Of a stretch of 64,000 bases of DNA, positions 6,883 through 15,753 are shown piece by piece. The DNA comes from Phycisphaerales bacterium (GTDB lineage: Bacteria > Planctomycetota > Phycisphaerae > Phycisphaerales > SM1A02), in NCBI GenBank assembly GCA_009692045.1, contig SIAA01000004.1:1-64000 (forward strand), written 5' to 3'. The notes beneath the pieces were generated by a model. That model had not been told where the DNA came from and searched no databases. It worked only from the letters and a program-made list of their open reading frames with translations. Within the stretch, counting starts at the first letter, position 1. Every line of letters starts with the position of its first letter. Both the position numbers and the translations under genes were made by a program.

Positions 6883-7155
6883 ATGGCTAAGGCAGTTGCA
6901 GATCCACAGGAGCTCCGGCGGTTTGCCCATGACCTAAAGAAGTTCAACACCGAGTTGCAGGCCGGCATGGCCTCACTCTCAGGTCGCATGGGTTCGCTCG
7001 CTCAAACATGGCGTGATCAGGAGCAGGCGAAGTTCTCCGGGGAGTTTGAGGCCACCATCAAGGTGCTGTCGCGCTTTGTGCTCGCCTCAGATGTGCACAT
7101 TCCCTTCCTGCTCCGCAAGGCAGAGAGACTCGACGAGTACCTCCGACAGAAGTGA
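6883..7155 (+). CDS. WXG100-like small helical protein
   Basis: The 90-aa protein is predicted to be two long helices joined at Trp43-Arg-Asp45, with Phe51 eight residues after the Trp. This is the spacing of the WXG100/ESAT-6 hairpin (Trp-x-Gly, then a hydrophobic residue at +8), but with Asp in place of Gly. WXG100 proteins are substrates and partners of type VII secretion ATPases. It begins 33 bases after rpoD and opens the cassette that ends with the FtsK/SpoIIIE ATPase at 8091, which supports the assignment. There is no signal peptide or membrane segment. A generic helical hairpin protein is the alternative. Confidence 0.6.
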   Translation: MAKAVADPQELRRFAHDLKKFNTELQAGMASLSGRMGSLAQTWRDQEQAKFSGEFEATIKVLSRFVLASDVHIPFLLRKAERLDEYLRQK

Positions 7156-7161
7156 GTTACC

Positions 7162-7821
7162 GTGGAAGGCGCGAATGTCAAAGCGGTAGACGCCGTTGTG
7201 CGCTTCAAGGCGCGACTGGTGAAGGTCCTTCAGGAGCTGGGGGCGTCGGCATCCGAAGCCAACTCGGAGGTTGAGCGTTCCAAGGTATGGCTGGAGCGGG
7301 AGATTCCCATTTACTGGCAGTCGGAGAGGCGCAAACGGTCGGAGGCAGTCGCCTCGTGTAAGAGCGCCCTGTATCGCAAGGGCATGGTTACCAGTTCGAA
7401 AGATCAGAAGCCTTCTGTCATAGATGAGAAAAAAGCGTTGCAGAGGGCGATAGCCAGTCTGGAAGAGGCCGAGACCAAGCTTGCCAACATCAAGCGATGG
7501 CGCGTCGCGTTTGAGCGTGAGGCGATTCTGTACCGAGCCGCGATGAGCCCCTTCACTCAGGCAATCGACTTTGATCTTCCCACCGCTGTTGCCGTTCTAA
7601 ATCGAATGGCCGAGGCGCTGGAGCGATATCTCCAGACGGCACTACCTGATCTGACTAGTCTGATTCCCCCCCCGGCGCTGCCGGGTTCGGAGCGCGGATC
7701 CGCTGCAGGTGCACCGCCTGCAGTTGAGACAACCCGCCGCACCGGCGGCGGCGCTGACTCGCTTGAACCACCCCCAGAGCAGAATGACCCAACAGCAACC
7801 TCGCCGGAGAGTTCCTCATGA
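7162..7821 (+). CDS. coiled-coil protein with Pro/Gly-rich tail, in FtsK/WXG cassette
   Basis: I do not recognise this family. The 219-aa product starts at GTG 7162, six bases after the WXG-like gene. Residues about 8-155 are charged and helical, with heptad-like spacing and few prolines, suggesting an elongated coiled coil. From about 165 onward the chain is low-complexity (Pro, Gly, Ala, Ser, Thr, Glu) and probably disordered. No signal peptide or membrane segment is seen. Its stop overlaps the ATG of the next small gene (ATGA at 7818-7821). Its place between two WXG-like genes suggests an accessory or substrate protein of the same system; this is inference from context. Confidence 0.75.
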   Translation: MEGANVKAVDAVVRFKARLVKVLQELGASASEANSEVERSKVWLEREIPIYWQSERRKRSEAVASCKSALYRKGMVTSSKDQKPSVIDEKKALQRAIASLEEAETKLANIKRWRVAFEREAILYRAAMSPFTQAIDFDLPTAVAVLNRMAEALERYLQTALPDLTSLIPPPALPGSERGSAAGAPPAVETTRRTGGGADSLEPPPEQNDPTATSPESSS

Positions 7822-8042
7822 GCGTTATGTCGGCCCGTGCCAAGATCCAGTTGGTTGTGAAGGAGTTGAATGAGTCATGGGCTCGCCTCCACGATGAGTG
7901 GGACGACCCAGCGTCACGGGCAATCAACACTCGCTACCTCGAGCCACTGGCGCTGCAATCGAAGGCAGCCCTCGGAGCCATGGACAAGATTCTTCAGACT
8001 CTTCATGCCATGCGGCGCGACTGTGGGCCGAGTTCCTCATGA
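7818..8042 (+). CDS. second WXG100-like small protein in the cassette
   Basis: This 74-aa protein overlaps the preceding stop by four bases (ATGA), a sign of translational coupling. It is predicted as a helix-turn-helix hairpin: helix one to about residue 27, a turn at Trp28-Asp-Asp30-Pro-Ala32, and a second helix to about residue 66. Relative to the WXG100 pattern, Trp is at 0, Asp replaces Gly at +2, Ala is at +4 and Ile is at +8. It is shorter than typical WXG100 proteins (about 100 aa). A Cys near the end (Cys69) is unpaired. The homology is suggested by pattern and context, not proven. Confidence 0.6.
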   Translation: MSVMSARAKIQLVVKELNESWARLHDEWDDPASRAINTRYLEPLALQSKAALGAMDKILQTLHAMRRDCGPSSS

Positions 8043-8090
8043 GAGATTTGCATGAGCGGGCGTTTTGATCTGCATTGGTAGGATCGCGTG

Positions 8091-11000
8091 ATGCCCGAGG
8101 ATGAACAGGTGCATTCCGCTCGGGGATTCTGCGGTGAAGCCGAGTTGCTGGTCTCATGCCTGCAGCAGGCTGGTGCGGCACTGGATGCAGCCCGTAGCGC
8201 CCACGAAGCGGTGGAGATAGCGACGCGAAGTGCCGAAGTTCAGCGACACTCGGCTGAACTTGTACGCATCGAGCAAGAGTGGACCGATAGCACGAGCTCG
8301 GCACGGGAGGATCAAGAGGCCACCTTGAAATCGGCCGAGGCGAAGTACCTCCGCAACACTCAGAAGATAGAGAAAAGTGGTAGTGCCGCCCTGTCTCGAG
8401 TGGAGGAGGCCGCGGCATCTGACGAGGAGACCATCGGCAAGACCTTTGACGAAGTCGTGTGGATGGCTGAAACCGTCTTTGAGGCGGGTGAGGAGGCGCC
8501 TCGAATCGACTTTGAACGGGAGCGCGACGAACTGAAGGCTCGGCTCAAGGACATTCACTCGTGCCTCTGCGAGGCAGATGCTTATCTTCGCACCTGCCGC
8601 ATGCATCTGCCTGCCGTGCCTCATTCCGAGTCAACCCCCCTTCGAGATGTTCGACCGGCAGCCGTGATTGCCATGCAGCTGACCGTTGTTCGAACCCATG
8701 TGGCCGTCCTGAAGCAGCTGCGGGGCATTCGCCTCTTTCGCGGCCCGATCCTGCTTCCACCTCTGTTGATCGCCGTGGCACTGGGCGCTGGTATCGGACT
8801 CATCGCCGACCCAGGCTCTGCCGCAAGTGCCGGCTACGGAGCCGCGGCAGGACTGGGTTTTTGCGCAGTCACCATCGCCGCTCTTTACCGCCGAGCTCGC
8901 CTTGCCATGGCGCATGCCATTCAACCGGCCCTTGATGCAGCAGCGATTGCTACCTCCTCGATCGATGCCGCCATCGAAGCGGCGCAACTTCTGCGCACAC
9001 AGCGCGAAGTGGAACGCGAGGCCACCAGAACGCAAGAGATCGACTCCGCCAATCGCAAGTTCCCCCCACTGCTTGTCAAACTAGAGGAGCATCGCAAGGG
9101 AAGCATGACACGCCTGCAGGAGAAGATTCAGACGGCGCTAACTAAAGAAGTGGACGCTCGGTGCCAATCAATCAAGGACGCGGAGTTGACCTTCGCGGTT
9201 CGAACCTCACTGGCTCGACGCAATCGGGAGGAGGCAGCCGAAAGAGAGTCGGCGCGCGGCAAGGTCGAGTTGGTCGCCCTCAGTGCCGCCGAATCAGCAC
9301 GGGTGAAGGACTACAGCGACTCATGGATTTCCGTCAGAAACAACGCGCAGACTCGAGTGGACTCACTTGCTGCGGATGATCGCCGACTCTTCCCTGATTG
9401 GAGCAATGGCCTCTTTGGCAGTGCTCTGCCGGCATCCGGCCTCTCGCCCGGCAATGCCCGATTTGGTTCGGTGACTTTTGCAGTAGCCAAGGTCAGCGGA
9501 TGCACCCCATCTGAGCCCGATCTCGCTTGGCCTACTGGGGCGCCGGTCGCTCTCATTCCCATGGCGCTGACTCTTCCCGCTCATGGCTCCCTACTTGTTG
9601 AGTGCGGGCACGACGGCCGCGAAGCAGGACTGGCACTACTTCAGTCCACCATGATGCGACTGCTGGTTGGTCTGCCCCCGGGAAAGGTCAGGTTCACTAT
9701 CGTCGATCCGGTGGGGCTGGGTCAGGGATTCGCGGCGTTCATGCATCTCGCCGACGAAATGGAGCAGTTGGTAGGAGAGCGCATCTGGACGGAACCGCGG
9801 ATGATCGAGCAGAAACTCTCCGACCTGTGCTCGCACATGGAGAATGTGATTCAGAAGTATCTCCGCAATGAGTTTGCCTCCATCGATGAGTACAACGCTC
9901 GGGCGGGCGAGATCGCCGAGCCCTATCGATTCCTTGTGCTCTGCGACTTTCCGGCCAACATCTCGGAGCAATCCGCCAAGCGACTGGCCAGCATCGTCAA
10001 CAGCGGCGCTCGCTGCGGAGTGTGGACCCTCATCCTTCGTGATGACAGACTGGAGATGCCGCCCGGCATCGACTTGACTGAGGTTCGCGACCGTGCCCTG
10101 CGGGTGCAGTGGCGAGACGGAGCATTCGTCCTATCGCACGGTCCGCTCGCTGACCTTCCCTTCACGGCAGATTCCCCTCCAGACTCAGCGGCCATGATCG
10201 GCATGCTCAAGCGCATCGGAGCCGCCGCGCGGCTGGCAGGCCGAGTAGAGGTGCCCTTTCAGACCATCGCGCCGCCCGAAGGCAAGTTCTGGACCGAGTC
10301 GAGTTCACAAGTCATTCGCGTTCCTCTCGGCCGCGCCGGAGCCGTGAAGCTGCAGTTCATGACACTGGGTGAAGGCACCTGCCAACACGCCCTCATTGCG
10401 GGCAAGACTGGTTCAGGCAAGTCCACTTTGCTGCACGCTCTTATCACCAATCTGTCACTTTGGTACAGCCCCGATGAAGTCGAGTTCTATCTGGTTGACT
10501 TCAAGAAAGGCGTGGAGTTCAAGACCTATGCCACCCACGCCCTTCCTCATGCCCGTGCCGTTGCGGTAGAGAGCGATCGCGAGTTCGGACTGAGCGTCCT
10601 GCAGGGGCTGGACAATGAGCTGAAACGCCGGGGCGAAATCTACCGCGATCTTGGGGTGCAGGACCTCGCGGGGTATCGCCGCAGCAAGAGCGAAGAGGTG
10701 ATGCCGCGCATCCTCCTGATCATTGACGAGTTCCAGGAGTTGTTCACCGAGGATGATCGCATTGGTCAGGATTCATCGCTCCTGCTCGATCGATTGGTTA
10801 GACAGGGCCGGGCCTTCGGCATGCATGTTGTGCTCGGCTCCCAGACTCTCGGCGGTGCCTACTCTCTGGCCCGAACCACTATGGGGCAAATGGGGATTCG
10901 CATCGCTCTGCAATGCAACGAGGCCGATTCGCAACTAATCCTCTCCGATGAGAATGTTGCGGCTCGACTGCTCTCTAGGCCTGGTGAGGCCATCTATAAC

Positions 11001-12032
11001 GATGCGGGCGGCTTGGTTGAGGGCAACAGTCCCTTCCAGGTTGTGTGGCTGCCGGAAGCAACGCGAGAGCAGTGGTTGGAGAAAGCGGCAGCGCATGCCC
11101 GCTCTCATCCGCCAAGGCGTAAGCCCGGGTGCATTGTTTTCGAGGGGAATGCGCCGGCGGATCTGCGGCTCAACAAACCTCTTTCTGAAGCACGGCCCCA
11201 GTCCAAGGTCGCACTGGCAAGACTCTGGTTGGGTGACGCCATCTCCATCAAGGATCCCACCGCAGCGATGATGAGGCGTCAAAGCGGGGCGAATGTGGTG
11301 GTGGTTGGTCAGCGCGATGAGGCGGCGCTGGCCCTTTCCGCAACAGCACTCGTTTCGATTGCAGCGCAGCATGAAGTAGGGAGAGCACGGGTTGTGCTGC
11401 TCGACAGTACGCCCCCCGATGATCCGGGATTCGGGAACCTGGCCGCTACTGCGGCTGCCTTGGGCTTGGAATGCGAGACTCCCAGCACACGCGAACTGGC
11501 TGACGCCATGACTCGACTTGGTGAGGAAGTGGGACGGCGAGCGGCGGCCGGCGACACGGAGTCTCCCTCGATCTACCTGCTAGTACACGGCTCGCACCGG
11601 CTCCGACCTCTGAAACGAAATGAGGATGACTTCTCCTTCAGCGCTTCAACTGGACCACCGGCCCCCGACAAACTTCTAGCCGCCATAGTGCGCGATGGAC
11701 CGGCACTGGGAGTTCACACCTTCATTTGGGTGGACACCGCAGCCAACCTGGCTCGCAATCTGGACCGAGGTTCGCTCAAGGAGTTTGATCAACGGGTGCT
11801 GTTCCAGGTGAGTGCCACCGACTCCAGCACATTGATCGACTCGCCCCTCGCAGCGCGTCTGGGCTTCCACCGGGCCCTGCTTCACAATGAGGAGCATGGG
11901 ACTCAGGAGAAGTTCCGCCCCTATGCCTATCCACCAGCAGAGATGATCGCAGCCGTAAGCAGCCGACGGAGACTCAGTAGTGGTACCTCACTGCCGCCGC
12001 CGCAAAGCAACGCTCCAACTTCTGCGCACTGA
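8091..12032 (+). CDS. membrane-anchored FtsK/SpoIIIE (EccC/EssC-like) ATPase
   Basis: The 1313-aa product (ATG 8091 with AGGA at 8080-8083; GTG 8088 is a possible alternative) has a charged coiled-coil N-terminus (about 20-160) and two adjacent hydrophobic segments (about 220-270) forming a membrane hairpin. A second coiled coil (about 280-440) leads to three tandem RecA-like FtsK domains. The first (about 495-690) has lost its P-loop. The second (about 730-1000) is intact, with GKTGSGKS at 771-778 and Asp879-Glu880 in Walker B. The third (about 1035-1290) again lacks a P-loop. Three tandem domains plus two membrane spans are the design of type VII secretion ATPases, and the two WXG-like genes upstream fit. 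No FHA domain, DNA-reading gamma domain or other T7SS component is seen. The 3' end overlaps hrpA by 59 bases tail-to-tail. Confidence 0.85.
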   Translation: MPEDEQVHSARGFCGEAELLVSCLQQAGAALDAARSAHEAVEIATRSAEVQRHSAELVRIEQEWTDSTSSAREDQEATLKSAEAKYLRNTQKIEKSGSAALSRVEEAAASDEETIGKTFDEVVWMAETVFEAGEEAPRIDFERERDELKARLKDIHSCLCEADAYLRTCRMHLPAVPHSESTPLRDVRPAAVIAMQLTVVRTHVAVLKQLRGIRLFRGPILLPPLLIAVALGAGIGLIADPGSAASAGYGAAAGLGFCAVTIAALYRRARLAMAHAIQPALDAAAIATSSIDAAIEAAQLLRTQREVEREATRTQEIDSANRKFPPLLVKLEEHRKGSMTRLQEKIQTALTKEVDARCQSIKDAELTFAVRTSLARRNREEAAERESARGKVELVALSAAESARVKDYSDSWISVRNNAQTRVDSLAADDRRLFPDWSNGLFGSALPASGLSPGNARFGSVTFAVAKVSGCTPSEPDLAWPTGAPVALIPMALTLPAHGSLLVECGHDGREAGLALLQSTMMRLLVGLPPGKVRFTIVDPVGLGQGFAAFMHLADEMEQLVGERIWTEPRMIEQKLSDLCSHMENVIQKYLRNEFASIDEYNARAGEIAEPYRFLVLCDFPANISEQSAKRLASIVNSGARCGVWTLILRDDRLEMPPGIDLTEVRDRALRVQWRDGAFVLSHGPLADLPFTADSPPDSAAMIGMLKRIGAAARLAGRVEVPFQTIAPPEGKFWTESSSQVIRVPLGRAGAVKLQFMTLGEGTCQHALIAGKTGSGKSTLLHALITNLSLWYSPDEVEFYLVDFKKGVEFKTYATHALPHARAVAVESDREFGLSVLQGLDNELKRRGEIYRDLGVQDLAGYRRSKSEEVMPRILLIIDEFQELFTEDDRIGQDSSLLLDRLVRQGRAFGMHVVLGSQTLGGAYSLARTTMGQMGIRIALQCNEADSQLILSDENVAARLLSRPGEAIYNDAGGLVEGNSPFQVVWLPEATREQWLEKAAAHARSHPPRRKPGCIVFEGNAPADLRLNKPLSEARPQSKVALARLWLGDAISIKDPTAAMMRRQSGANVVVVGQRDEAALALSATALVSIAAQHEVGRARVVLLDSTPPDDPGFGNLAATAAALGLECETPSTRELADAMTRLGEEVGRRAAAGDTESPSIYLLVHGSHRLRPLKRNEDDFSFSASTGPPAPDKLLAAIVRDGPALGVHTFIWVDTAANLARNLDRGSLKEFDQRVLFQVSATDSSTLIDSPLAARLGFHRALLHNEEHGTQEKFRPYAYPPAEMIAAVSSRRRLSSGTSLPPPQSNAPTSAH

Positions 12033-15000
12033 CCGTGGTGCGCGTGCCCAGATCCTGGGCGTACAGCCACACCGAATACTCCTCCAGCATCCGTTGCAGA
12101 ACATCGAGTTCTTGCAGTCGCGCCGGGCCCGCTGCGGTCGTTGTCATCTCGCTGAGGGCGATCTCAAATGAGGCACGAACCTGGGAATGCTCCATGTCCC
12201 ACTCCCCACCTCTCTCCGCCGCCTTGCGGAGTCTGGCTGCCAGAGCCGCGGTCCACCGCCCGATCGAACTCAGAGTCAGGTCAACATCATGAACAAATCG
12301 CGGTGGAGCCCACAACTGATCGAGATGCGCCCGCACAGCTGCCCATGTTGGTGCCAGCGCCGGGGAGACCGGTTCTTCCAGTTTGCTGATCACTCGCAAT
12401 CGCCCCGCTAACGCACCATGCAGATGTTGCACCGATTCGTGGATCATCTGCCAGAGGCGAGAGCTGGCATCGGCGCTGCGGGCGTCAAACTCCCCGCGCG
12501 TGCGCAGAGGCCCCTGACCGCGCATGGCTGCGGTACCGATGGCGCGCTTGATGACTGCCAGGGCATGTCTGCTGCCACCCAGATCAGCCCCCAGCAATCC
12601 ACACTCGGGCCAGTGGGGGTGATTTTCAACTTGAAGCCGAATCGCGTCGTGGTGCGCCCTTACAAATAGCACTGCCGCCGCCTCTTCGGTGAGCGGGGCG
12701 ACATCCGCGCTCCGAGCCACCACAACCCTGTCCACCGATTCCCCTCGAGCCGCGAGTGCGGGGAACACTATGCCTGGTGCTATCGACTCACTCCCTAGTG
12801 AGGAACTGATCCCCTCCGAAGGAAACTCGAGCACAGATTCCGCCAACCATGTTGGAGCAAATGCGCGTCTGCACTCAAGGGCAAATGCCGCCTCCCCCTC
12901 CTTCGTTACTGCTGCCGCGACTGCGGCCCAGTCACGCCCGCATGCGAGCACCTCTTGGTCAGGTCCGATGATTTCGATGCGCATGCGCAAGTGAGCGGGC
13001 AGTCCCGCGAGTTGGAAGTCGCTCCTCGCAATCTCGATCTCACCAACTCGCGACAGGTACTCCGCCAACCGATTCAGCAGGTCACCCTCGGTGTCTCCCA
13101 GAGACTCAGCAGCACCAGCAGCAAACTCGAGAGCTGGCTGGAACCGCACCCTCGCTCGCTTGGGGAGGGCTCGGATAAGTGCCTCCAACTTCTCCGGCAG
13201 AAGCCCCGGGACCAGCCACTCCAGCGCACGGCCGTCGAAGACTGGCACGGCCCAGATTGGCACCTGAATACTGGGGCCGTCCATTTCATCACCGGGCTGA
13301 TGCCGATACTGGAGCGCAAGTGTGGTACCTCGCGCCCGGAGTGAACTGGGAAACCGCGCGTGATCCACTAAAGAGACACCCTCGGCTCGAAGATCATGTT
13401 CCTGCATGCGCAGTCTTGACTCGTGAGTGGGATCGCTCCGTATCCATGAAAGCAGACTTGGCCACGAGTGGATTTCCTGCGGCACTCTGCCATCGTAGAA
13501 CCGCTGGATCGCCTCGACTCCCATGGCGCAGTCGCGGCGCAGAATCGCCGACTCATCTGCGAGTCGATGGCGAAGGGCGCGATTGTCAAGCATGAATGAC
13601 GCGGGCTCAACAACGCGCTCCTCCACCAGCGCCCCCTGAATGAACAGATCGCGCGCACCTGCGGGATCGCTTGGCCCATAGGGGCACAGCCTCCTCGGGA
13701 TCAATGTCAGAGCGCCGCATGAGATCCGCTCCCAAGCGGCGACCTGACCCGATCGCTCCACCCAGTGCGGCTCACTCACCGATCGCGTGATCATGTGGCT
13801 GGCAACGCGCTCAATCCATGCCGGAGAGATTCGCGTTACGAATCGAGCGAATCGCCGGGTGGTCTCTACAATTTCCGCAGCCACGAGCCAGTGACCGCAA
13901 GCAGAGGCGAGGGCACTGGAGGGATGAATGACAAACTCGGCGCCCGAGACACTCTTGTATGTCCCCTTCTCCGTGCGCATCGCTGCATTGCAGATGAAGG
14001 AGGCCAGTAGCGCCCGGTGCAGCCCATCGCTCGCCAACAGAGACTCATTCGTTTCTATACCAGCACCAGCGCTGCCGGACCGCTCGCGCGTGGCTCGCGC
14101 GAGTTGAGAGTAGACATCGGCCCACTCTCGGAGCAATCGATGGGAAAGAAACCGCTCCCGGCACCAACGGCGCAAAACACTGGAGCCCAGCGTTTCTCCT
14201 GCCGTTTTCCAGGCCTCCCACAGACGAAGTACACCACCGGCATCGGACTTGGCGTCGCGGAACTGCGCGTGGGCAAAGTCGGCAGCTGCGGAATCGGCCG
14301 CGGGTCGCTCCCGAGGATCCTGAACTGAGAGGAATGATGCCACTACCAGTCCGGCCTGGGGGCAGCCCTCCTGCTGGGAAGCGTCTACCAGTTTCGCCAA
14401 GCGCGGATCTAGATTCAATCCCGCCAGTCGATGCCCGCAGGGAGTGAGCCGCCCGTTTTGAGCAGTAGCTCCAATCTCAAACAGGGTCTGCTCAGCTTCG
14501 GCGATGGCCCGAGACGAAGGCGCATCAATGAACGGGAACTTTTCCGGCTCCCCGAGATGCAACGACTTCATTTGCATCAGAGCGCCGGCGAGGCTGGTGC
14601 GGCGGATCTCGGGAAGTACGAACTCCGGTCGTGCTGCCAGATCGGCTTCACTGTAGAGGCGCAGGCAGATGCCGGGCCCGAGGCGACCGCATCTACCTGC
14701 CCTCTGCCTGGCTGATGCTTGCGCGACGGGCTCGATGGGCAGGCGTTGAATCCGCGATTTAGTGCTGTACCGAGCGATGCGGGCCAGACCGCTATCGACG
14801 ACGAATCGAACGCGCGGCACGGTGAGACTGGTCTCAGCAATGTTGGTGGCGAGCACAACACGCCGCAGGGGCGAACTTGCGAACAGCCGATCCTGCGCGG
14901 CTGCGGGAAGCCGAGAGTGCAGGGGCAGGATTTCCAGAGACTGTCCGAATCGCCCGGTCAGAACTTCAGCCGTTTCCATGATCTCTCGCTCCCCGGGGAG

Positions 15001-15753
15001 GAACACCAAGACATCTTCACCTGGCGCAGAGGAGGTCCCCTCGCCCTCCCCATGCGCTTGCACCATGACCAGAGGGCAGTCAGGTTCGGTCACACACTCC
15101 TCCACAGCTCGGCACACCTGATCTGCCAGCGCCGGCGACTCGCCTGCGTCCTCGGTGGCTGGGCGGTAGCGAATATCAACTTGATGAGTCCGGCCGGCAA
15201 CTTCAAGGACCGGACAGCCACCGAGAAAGTCGCTGAACTTTCCTGCCTCGATAGTGGCGCTTGAAACCACGATGCGCAGATCATCACGACGCTCGAGGAG
15301 TCGGCGCAGACATCCCAGAAGAAAGTCGATATTGAGGGAACGCTCGTGAGCCTCGTCGACAATGACGGTGGATGTCCCTCGCAACAGCGGATCATCACGC
15401 ATCCGCGCGAGCAGCAATCCATCTGTCACCACTTCGATGAGACACTGGCGGCTGATGCAGCGATCGAAGCGAGTTCGGTAACCCACAAGTGTCCCCAGCG
15501 CCGTGCCCGACTCCTCGGCAATTCTTGTAGCGATGCTGCGAGCGGCGATGCGTCTCGGTTGTGTCTGCAGCACCTTCGCCCCGGCCACTGCTAGGCAAAT
15601 GCGCGGCAACTGGGTGCTCTTGCCCGAACCCGTTTCCCCCACCACTATCAGCGCTCGATTGCGGCGCAGAGACTCGGTGATTTCGCGGGCACGGGCGCCG
15701 ACCGGCAGGTCGGCCCGCACGGCTCCAGGTAGTTGCTGACTCTCCAGTGTCAC
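11974..15753 (-). CDS. hrpA: ATP-dependent DEAH-box RNA helicase HrpA
   Basis: HrpA-type helicases unwind RNA; in Escherichia coli HrpA acts on mRNA processing and stalled ribosomes. The 1259-aa product has GETGSGKS at 39-46, DEAH at 133-136, a Ser-Ala-Thr motif III, the helicase C-terminal motif with Gln-Arg-x-Gly-Arg, the HA2/OB regions, and a long C-terminal region of the DUF3418 type found in full-length HrpA (about 1300 aa). The start is GTG 15753, with no clear ribosome-binding site. It converges on, and overlaps, the FtsK-like gene. A fragment-length HrpB is excluded by the C-terminal domain. Confidence 0.93.
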   Translation of the reverse strand: MTLESQQLPGAVRADLPVGARAREITESLRRNRALIVVGETGSGKSTQLPRICLAVAGAKVLQTQPRRIAARSIATRIAEESGTALGTLVGYRTRFDRCISRQCLIEVVTDGLLLARMRDDPLLRGTSTVIVDEAHERSLNIDFLLGCLRRLLERRDDLRIVVSSATIEAGKFSDFLGGCPVLEVAGRTHQVDIRYRPATEDAGESPALADQVCRAVEECVTEPDCPLVMVQAHGEGEGTSSAPGEDVLVFLPGEREIMETAEVLTGRFGQSLEILPLHSRLPAAAQDRLFASSPLRRVVLATNIAETSLTVPRVRFVVDSGLARIARYSTKSRIQRLPIEPVAQASARQRAGRCGRLGPGICLRLYSEADLAARPEFVLPEIRRTSLAGALMQMKSLHLGEPEKFPFIDAPSSRAIAEAEQTLFEIGATAQNGRLTPCGHRLAGLNLDPRLAKLVDASQQEGCPQAGLVVASFLSVQDPRERPAADSAAADFAHAQFRDAKSDAGGVLRLWEAWKTAGETLGSSVLRRWCRERFLSHRLLREWADVYSQLARATRERSGSAGAGIETNESLLASDGLHRALLASFICNAAMRTEKGTYKSVSGAEFVIHPSSALASACGHWLVAAEIVETTRRFARFVTRISPAWIERVASHMITRSVSEPHWVERSGQVAAWERISCGALTLIPRRLCPYGPSDPAGARDLFIQGALVEERVVEPASFMLDNRALRHRLADESAILRRDCAMGVEAIQRFYDGRVPQEIHSWPSLLSWIRSDPTHESRLRMQEHDLRAEGVSLVDHARFPSSLRARGTTLALQYRHQPGDEMDGPSIQVPIWAVPVFDGRALEWLVPGLLPEKLEALIRALPKRARVRFQPALEFAAGAAESLGDTEGDLLNRLAEYLSRVGEIEIARSDFQLAGLPAHLRMRIEIIGPDQEVLACGRDWAAVAAAVTKEGEAAFALECRRAFAPTWLAESVLEFPSEGISSSLGSESIAPGIVFPALAARGESVDRVVVARSADVAPLTEEAAAVLFVRAHHDAIRLQVENHPHWPECGLLGADLGGSRHALAVIKRAIGTAAMRGQGPLRTRGEFDARSADASSRLWQMIHESVQHLHGALAGRLRVISKLEEPVSPALAPTWAAVRAHLDQLWAPPRFVHDVDLTLSSIGRWTAALAARLRKAAERGGEWDMEHSQVRASFEIALSEMTTTAAGPARLQELDVLQRMLEEYSVWLYAQDLGTRTTVSAQKLERCFAAAAVRYHY

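What the first reader, a model, noticed from the sequence alone, without database searches (positions are those of the whole stretch)
6883..12032. Reduced type VII secretion-like cassette in a planctomycete-like genome
Four adjacent genes encode two WXG100-like hairpins, a coiled-coil protein and a two-span, three-ATPase-domain FtsK/SpoIIIE protein. Known type VII systems combine such an ATPase with WXG proteins, but also EccB/D/E and mycosin or EssA/B/EsaA parts, none of which are here. This may be a minimal or divergent export machine, or a DNA-handling machine that shares the parts.
Basis: partly seen in the sequence, partly recalled or inferred. Interest (0 to 1): 0.82.

Follow-up and report, generated by a model that had tools for sequence, protein, structure and literature searches.

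The report
Stripped-down type VII-like planctomycete machine
Four genes make a membrane-anchored molecular motor and three small helical-hairpin proteins that planctomycete bacteria keep as one set even when the genes lie megabases apart; it is a cut-down, apparently toxin-free relative of the type VII protein-secretion machine, a kind noted before only in a table footnote and in mobile defence islands.

Summary
Window 6883-12032 encodes a true WXG100 protein, a long coiled-coil hairpin, a WXG-like mini-hairpin, and an EccC/EssC-type ATPase with two membrane spans and three FtsK-like domains, only the middle one with Walker motifs. It is not a chance cluster: in 392 Planctomycetota genomes the WXG, hairpin and ATPase genes each occur in 60, and 56 hold all three, even where the genes are scattered over one chromosome. 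No known accessory T7SS part was found to travel with them. The kind is not new: Zhang et al. 2012 footnote solo WXG proteins with an ATPase of which only the middle domain is active, planctomycetes included, as 'mobile versions of T7SS'; Bell et al. 2024 describe the same genes in CoCoNuT defence loci, with a nuclease on the coiled coil and no membrane spans. New here: the planctomycete ATPases are membrane-anchored, the hairpin has no recognisable toxin (56 genomes measured, three with an Imm33-like domain), and the ATPase tree largely follows bacterial families, so here the set looks neither mobile nor armed. Export is inferred, not shown. Best reading: a stand-alone, disarmed T7SS-like machine; a new variant of a known kind.

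The parts
6883..7155 (+). WXG100 protein, 90 aa, W43-R-D at the hairpin turn, conserved C-terminus RKAE..EYL.QK/R
   Evidence: PF06013 29.4 bits, over cut-off; 59-63% identity to orthologues, the most conserved of the four; only PF06013 hit over cut-off in the whole genome
7162..7821 (+). 219-aa long coiled-coil hairpin protein (GTG start) with disordered tail; the position that carries a toxin domain in a plasmid relative
   Evidence: AlphaFold model helices 7-75 and 86-158, pLDDT 84; family found in 60 of 392 genomes; no significant domain
7818..8042 (+). 74-aa WXG-like mini-hairpin, invariant W28-x-D30 at the turn; start overlaps the preceding stop (ATGA)
   Evidence: AlphaFold hairpin 3-27/31-69, pLDDT 89; alignment of 21 relatives; one relative scores 18 bits on the WXG100 profile
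8088..12032 (+). EccC/EssC-like FtsK-family ATPase, 1314 aa from GTG 8088 (1313 aa from ATG 8091)
   Evidence: PF01580 114 bits; PDB matches: EccC of T. curvata 8e-37, EccC5 4e-29, YukB 1e-22
8088..8723 (+). N-terminal charged, probably coiled-coil region of the ATPase (residues 1-212)
   Evidence: position before the spans in the sequence and in alignment A2; secondary structure not modelled
8742..8885 (+). two predicted transmembrane spans (residues about 219-241 and 248-266) with a very short loop
   Evidence: hydropathy; a hydrophobic span or pair at residues about 195-335 in nearly all full-length planctomycete orthologues
9450..10247 (+). NBD1, degenerate FtsK-like domain without Walker A (residues 455-720)
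   Evidence: weak PF01580 match at 9639-10016, E 2.4e-4; no P-loop there in relatives
10284..11042 (+). NBD2, the only domain with Walker A (10401-10424, GKTGSGKS) and Walker B (LLIIDEFQE)
11175..11987 (+). NBD3, degenerate domain homologous to NBD2 (residues 1030-1300)
   Evidence: hhalign NBD2/NBD3 over 207 columns, P 2.6e-5

Best explanation
The four genes are a stand-alone, membrane-anchored version of the 'solo WXG plus middle-domain-active EssC-like ATPase' system. The ATPase is anchored in the inner membrane by a span pair between two coiled-coil stretches, probably as a hexamer. Its middle NBD hydrolyses ATP, while the outer two act as docking and gating domains. The WXG100 dimer binds the motor as obligate cofactor or cargo. 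The long hairpin pairs with the mini-hairpin, much as LXG carriers pair with Lap proteins, and is moved by the motor across or into the inner membrane. In planctomycetes the hairpin mostly has no C-terminal toxin, so the machine serves an inherited, non-weapon role. Shown here: the parts, the modelled folds, the Walker pattern, the anchor, co-inheritance, lack of a recognisable warhead, and the relation to an armed relative. Inferred: hexamer, partner pairings, export, direction and biological role.
For: WXG100 membership. EccC/EssC-type ATPases as best structural relatives. One Walker A, in the middle NBD, in every orthologue that covers that domain. Hydrophobic span pair conserved. Co-inheritance of the parts, including chromosome-scale contigs where the genes lie 0.16-2.9 Mb apart. 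No other recurrent neighbour across families. Same gene order with a WHH/colicin-DNase domain on the coiled coil plus a SUKH immunity gene in a Helicobacter plasmid. Imm33-like domain on the hairpin in three planctomycetes. ATPase tree largely follows families. Literature on the kind: PMC3482391, PMC11090510.
Against: No secretion data were found for any member. TM-less relatives cannot by themselves span a membrane (Bell et al. note this), so WXG plus ATPase need not mean export. No outer-membrane or periplasmic component was identified. No cargo gene other than the cassette itself was found. The hairpin's fold matches are generic coiled coils, so the LXG/Lap comparison rests on layout only.
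Confidence: 0.6

Rival explanations
1. A cytoplasm-facing nucleic-acid or conflict machine: the FtsK-family motor moves DNA or RNA, or loads a defence complex at the membrane, and the WXG and hairpin proteins are regulators, not exported cargo.
For: A Caballeronia plasmid relative lies among VWA, CARF, PP2C and kinase genes, and the same genes extend CoCoNuT type IV restriction loci with nuclease-fused coiled coils and TM-less ATPases (PMC11090510). The FtsK superfamily includes DNA translocases. An H. pylori core gene cluster combines FtsK/SpoIIIE with an HNH/EndoVII nuclease.
Against: In planctomycetes no nuclease, kinase, VWA or CARF neighbour recurs. The ATPase carries a membrane anchor in nearly all full-length orthologues. 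The best structural relatives are secretion ATPases rather than DNA translocases (E 8e-37 against 1e-12).
Confidence: 0.27
2. A full type VII secretion system whose remaining parts are unlinked and too divergent to recognise here.
For: The cassette's own genes are often unlinked, so further unlinked parts could exist. YukD-like genes occur in 4 of 35 carrier genomes.
Against: YukC/EssB not found over cut-off in 35 genomes with a working control. YukD absent from 31 of 35. The ATPase itself has fewer NBDs than EccC/EssC and a different pattern of active domains.
Confidence: 0.1
3. A decaying remnant of an armed mobile system that has lost its toxin and now has no function.
For: The hairpin lacks a recognisable toxin domain in the genomes measured; no immunity gene sits in the window cassette.
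Against: All four genes are intact and conserved across families. The WXG protein keeps 39 of 90 positions invariant in 13 sequences. The genes are kept even when separated by megabases.
Confidence: 0.03

Closest known systems
Solo WXG with YueA-like ATPase of which only the middle of three HerA/FtsK domains is active (Zhang et al. 2012, PMC3482391, Table 1 footnote 6)
   Same: Three NBDs, middle one active, single WXG gene; planctomycetes are named among the hosts
   Different: They call it a mobile T7SS. Here it is single-copy and largely follows bacterial families, and it has two further conserved parts and a membrane anchor that the footnote does not mention
[quoted passage not shown] 2024, PMC11090510; compare Caballeronia pSBC2-5, L142)
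   Same: WXG100, coiled coil, second WXG-like small protein and ATPase; three NBDs with the central one active; N-terminal coiled coil
   Different: Their coiled coil carries a nuclease, the ATPase lacks spans, and kinase/phosphatase/VWA partners are present; none of these holds here
H. pylori HP0062/HP0066 and the Helicobacter plasmid cassette L144
   Same: HP0062 is a hairpin dimer with WRD at the turn in a cluster with an FtsK/SpoIIIE gene; the planctomycete profile matches it at 2e-7; L144 has the same gene order
   Different: L144 carries a WHH/colicin-DNase domain and a SUKH immunity gene; its ATPase has no span pair
T7SSa-T7SSj of Actinomycetota and Bacillota (Garrett et al. 2024, PMC11217815)
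   Same: Membrane-bound EccC/EssC-family ATPase plus WXG100 protein
   Different: Those have four NBDs, almost always a ubiquitin-like component, and further parts; here three NBDs and, in nearly all genomes, no ubiquitin-like part
LXG carrier plus Lap partner of T7SSb
   Same: Long helical protein encoded next to a small WXG-fold-like partner; the armed relative has a C-terminal toxin and an immunity gene
   Different: No sequence relation to LXG was found, and planctomycete hairpins mostly end without a further domain; the likeness is one of layout only

Membership tests
WXG100 superfamily (90-aa protein) | Sequence match to PF06013 and a W-x-G type turn between two helices | tested here: met
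   29.4 bits over cut-off 27.3; EsxB/HP0062/EsxA matches. The turn is W-R-D, as in HP0062. Below the NCBIfam TIGR03930 cut-off
WXG100 superfamily (74-aa protein) | Helical hairpin with Trp at the turn and profile-level relation to WXG100 | tested here: inconclusive
   Hairpin model and invariant W-x-D met. Profile relation weak: hhalign P 1.3e-4, probability 54%; one member hits the WXG profile at 4e-4 in a small set. Foldseek best E 2.1
Type VII secretion system (any subtype) | Membrane-anchored EccC/EssC-family ATPase | tested here: met
   but far below the EssC/EccC equivalog cut-offs
Type VII secretion system (any subtype) | Four nucleotide-binding domains after the spans | tested here: not met
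   Three FtsK-like domains, one with Walker A; four is the number in PMC11217815
Type VII secretion system (any subtype) | Ubiquitin-like EsaB/YukD or EccD domain | tested here: not met
   YukD in 4 of 35 carrier genomes, 0 in this one
Type VII secretion system (any subtype) | ATPase-dependent secretion of the WXG100 protein | not testable with these tools
   needs fractionation or secretome data
T7SSb | EssB/YukC membrane pseudokinase | tested here: not met
   No match over cut-off in 35 genomes; B. subtilis control rings. The sub-cut-off matches in G107 lie in very long frames and are probably protein kinases (inference)
T7SSa (ESX) | EccB | tested here: inconclusive
   No match in 35 genomes, but no control genome rang
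T7SSa (ESX) | EccE and mycosin | not tested
   no recurrent neighbour of any kind in the loci read; no genome-wide search made
Solo-WXG / middle-active ATPase system (Zhang 2012) | Three FtsK/HerA domains, only the middle one active, with a WXG gene | tested here: met
CoCoNuT III-A EssC-like extension | Nuclease-fused coiled coil and TerY-P/CoCoNuT core genes nearby | tested here: not met
   No nuclease domain on the window's hairpin; no such recurrent neighbours

The most novel reading that the evidence does not exclude
A vertically inherited, non-weapon type VII-like secretion machine native to a diderm phylum, working with four proteins only, one of them a membrane-anchored motor with a single active NBD. 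It would be the smallest T7SS known and evidence that this family has a housekeeping role outside Gram-positives.
Probability: 0.33. Interest if true: 0.8.

Novelty: new variant of a known kind. Interest (0 to 1): 0.5.

Why it matters
T7SS function is studied almost only in Gram-positive bacteria, where the machine has many parts. A four-protein set that is kept together across Planctomycetota without needing to be linked defines a candidate minimal core of the WXG/EssC mechanism. It also gives a natural comparison of armed, TM-less, mobile versions with an unarmed, membrane-anchored, inherited version. That makes testable what the WXG protein and the single active NBD do on their own, and whether WXG/EssC machines export at all in diderms.

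Tried and rejected
Chance ORFs: rejected by conservation in 16 related contigs and 60 genomes. Gene neighbours as a clue to function: flanks are rpoD, dnaG, clpX, rpmB, HrpA helicase, an OPT transporter or PolX by lineage, and nothing recurs across families. Viral origin: the WXG profile found no relative in viral contigs. Known defence families: only P-loop-region hits to SspH, Mad8 and HerA. WXG effectors elsewhere in the own genome: PF06013 gives one hit over its cut-off, the cassette itself. Fold identity of the long hairpin: generic coiled coils only. Promoter and terminator scan: nothing above chance. Essentiality in Planctopirus limnophila: the main text of PMC10632474 does not mention WXG or ESAT genes and names only the ordinary FtsK; supplements could not be read. 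The TerY-P paper itself (Anantharaman 2012) is not held.

Full report
Observation. The four ORFs are present at the coordinates given, on the + strand, tightly packed: 33 bases after the rpoD-like gene, 6 bases between the first two, an ATGA overlap between the second and third, 45 bases before the fourth. The 90-aa product passes the Pfam WXG100 cut-off. A profile of 13 orthologues matches B. anthracis EsxB (1.1e-9), H. pylori HP0062 (2e-7) and S. aureus EsxA (0.02) in the PDB. The 1314-aa product matches EccC of Thermomonospora, mycobacterial EccC5 and Bacillus YukB far better than FtsK, but stays below the NCBIfam cut-offs for EssC and EccC.

ATPase anatomy. Two hydrophobic stretches at about 219-241 and 248-266 sit between an N-terminal charged region and a second long charged stretch, followed by three FtsK-like domains. 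The middle one has Walker A GKTGSGKS at residue 772 and Walker B LLIIDEFQE. The first is a weak PF01580 match. The third aligns with the middle one over 207 columns. Across the planctomycete orthologues that cover the middle domain, the P-loop pattern occurs exactly once, there, and one or two hydrophobic spans are found at residues about 195-335 in nearly all full-length proteins. G107 lacks the spans in its 1006-aa ATPase; a 983-aa gene whose start overlaps the ATPase stop has a hydrophobic pair at about 321-391 instead.

Small proteins. The 74-aa protein is modelled as a hairpin (pLDDT 89) whose turn falls on W28-D-D30. W21, W28 and D30 are invariant in 21 diverse relatives, and several relatives have Phe eight positions after the second Trp, the spacing seen in the WXG protein (W43, F51). 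Foldseek places ESX proteins in the top seven places, but with E-values above 2, so the fold match alone proves little. Profile comparison gives a weak but consistent signal. The 219-aa protein is a long two-helix hairpin with a disordered tail and only generic fold matches.

Distribution. Sixteen related contigs keep the block in order. Two contigs (L011, L023) have the ATPase next to topA instead, but their genomes carry the hairpin and mini-hairpin elsewhere. In the phylum sample of 392 genomes the WXG protein, the ATPase and the hairpin each occur in 60; 57 share WXG and ATPase, 59 share WXG and hairpin, and 56 have all three. The exceptions are mostly draft genomes (G271, G279, G296 without ATPase; G219, G336, G377 without WXG); G377 is 98% complete, and G107 lacks the hairpin. 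Fisher p is about 5e-61, overstated because genomes share ancestry. The mini-hairpin was searched only in the carriers, where it is found in 61 of 65 at a loose cut-off, a few of them marginal. On chromosome-scale contigs the genes can be far apart: in G105 all four are 0.48-2.4 Mb from each other; in G024, G152, G307 and G356 they fall into two or three separate places. Dispersal with retention is good evidence that the parts work together. The WXG gene is single-copy in every genome apart from one short fragment in G232. The ATPase tree groups members largely by family, pointing to mainly vertical inheritance with many losses; near-complete genomes of the same order lack the set.

Armed relatives. 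tblastn in plasmids finds the same combination in Caballeronia and Rhodococcus, and related ATPases beside small WXG-like genes in Helicobacter and Deinococcus. In Helicobacter sp. NHP19-012 the order is WXG, coiled coil with a WHH/colicin-DNase domain, SUKH immunity gene, 77-aa protein, ATPase. In Caballeronia the cassette is embedded in VWA, CARF, PP2C and kinase genes. The Caballeronia, Rhodococcus and Helicobacter ATPases show no span pair. In 53 of the 56 planctomycete genomes measured the hairpin ends within a short low-complexity tail; G325, G368 and G384 carry an Imm33-like domain. I therefore read the planctomycete hairpin as a carrier without warhead; whether it lost one or never had one is open.

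What is known. Zhang et al. [quoted passage not shown] Bell et al. 2024 describe an EssC-like, D2-active ATPase with two WXG100 proteins and a coiled-coil nuclease in CoCoNuT loci, without membrane spans. An H. pylori pan-genome paper calls WXG plus FtsK a minimal T7SS set. Garrett et al. 2024 describe T7SSa to T7SSj in Gram-positives, with four NBDs and almost always a ubiquitin-like component. The present set fails those two features, so I do not file it as a T7SS; it does meet the definition of the solo-WXG/middle-active system and, as far as the parts tell, works like a reduced T7SS.

Mechanism and uncertainty. The membrane anchor, EccC-type motor and WXG100 cofactor favour transport of folded helical hairpins at the inner membrane; the absence of recurrent nucleases or signalling genes argues against a restriction role in planctomycetes. 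Export itself is not shown by anything here, and the TM-less relatives mean that the WXG/ATPase pair does not by itself imply export. I give the export reading 0.6 and the intracellular or nucleic-acid reading 0.27.

Noticed in passing
window 11974-12032: The ATPase gene and the convergent HrpA-type helicase gene (11974-15753, minus strand) overlap by 59 bases at their 3' ends.
   Followed up: no
L083 1468-2598, L079 1495-2634, L078 1495-2568: In three planctomycetes (G368, G325, G384) the long hairpin protein carries a C-terminal Imm33-like domain (PF24719, over cut-off), a domain class otherwise known as toxin immunity.
   Followed up: partly
L144 9408-13810: A Helicobacter plasmid (from a cat) carries WXG, coiled-coil WHH/colicin-DNase, SUKH immunity, mini-hairpin and FtsK genes in a row: an armed version of the same layout.
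   Followed up: partly
L135 7042-13569: In genome G107 the ATPase lacks spans; a 119-aa gene with hydrophobic stretches lies before it, and a 983-aa gene with a hydrophobic pair overlaps its end. No hairpin or mini-hairpin gene was found there.
   Followed up: partly
L098, L099, L100, L101: YukD-like ubiquitin-fold genes occur in four carrier genomes (G353, G377, G141, G056), on other contigs than the cassette. Role unknown.
   Followed up: no
L145 11180-16419: A Deinococcus plasmid has a 142-aa gene with a C-terminal hydrophobic span directly before the ATPase and several small helical genes after it; its ATPase P-loop reads AMTGAGKS.
   Followed up: no
L012: A record titled 'Chitinophaga pinensis' MAG groups with the Phycisphaerae contigs by gene content and sequence; the title is probably wrong.
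   Followed up: no
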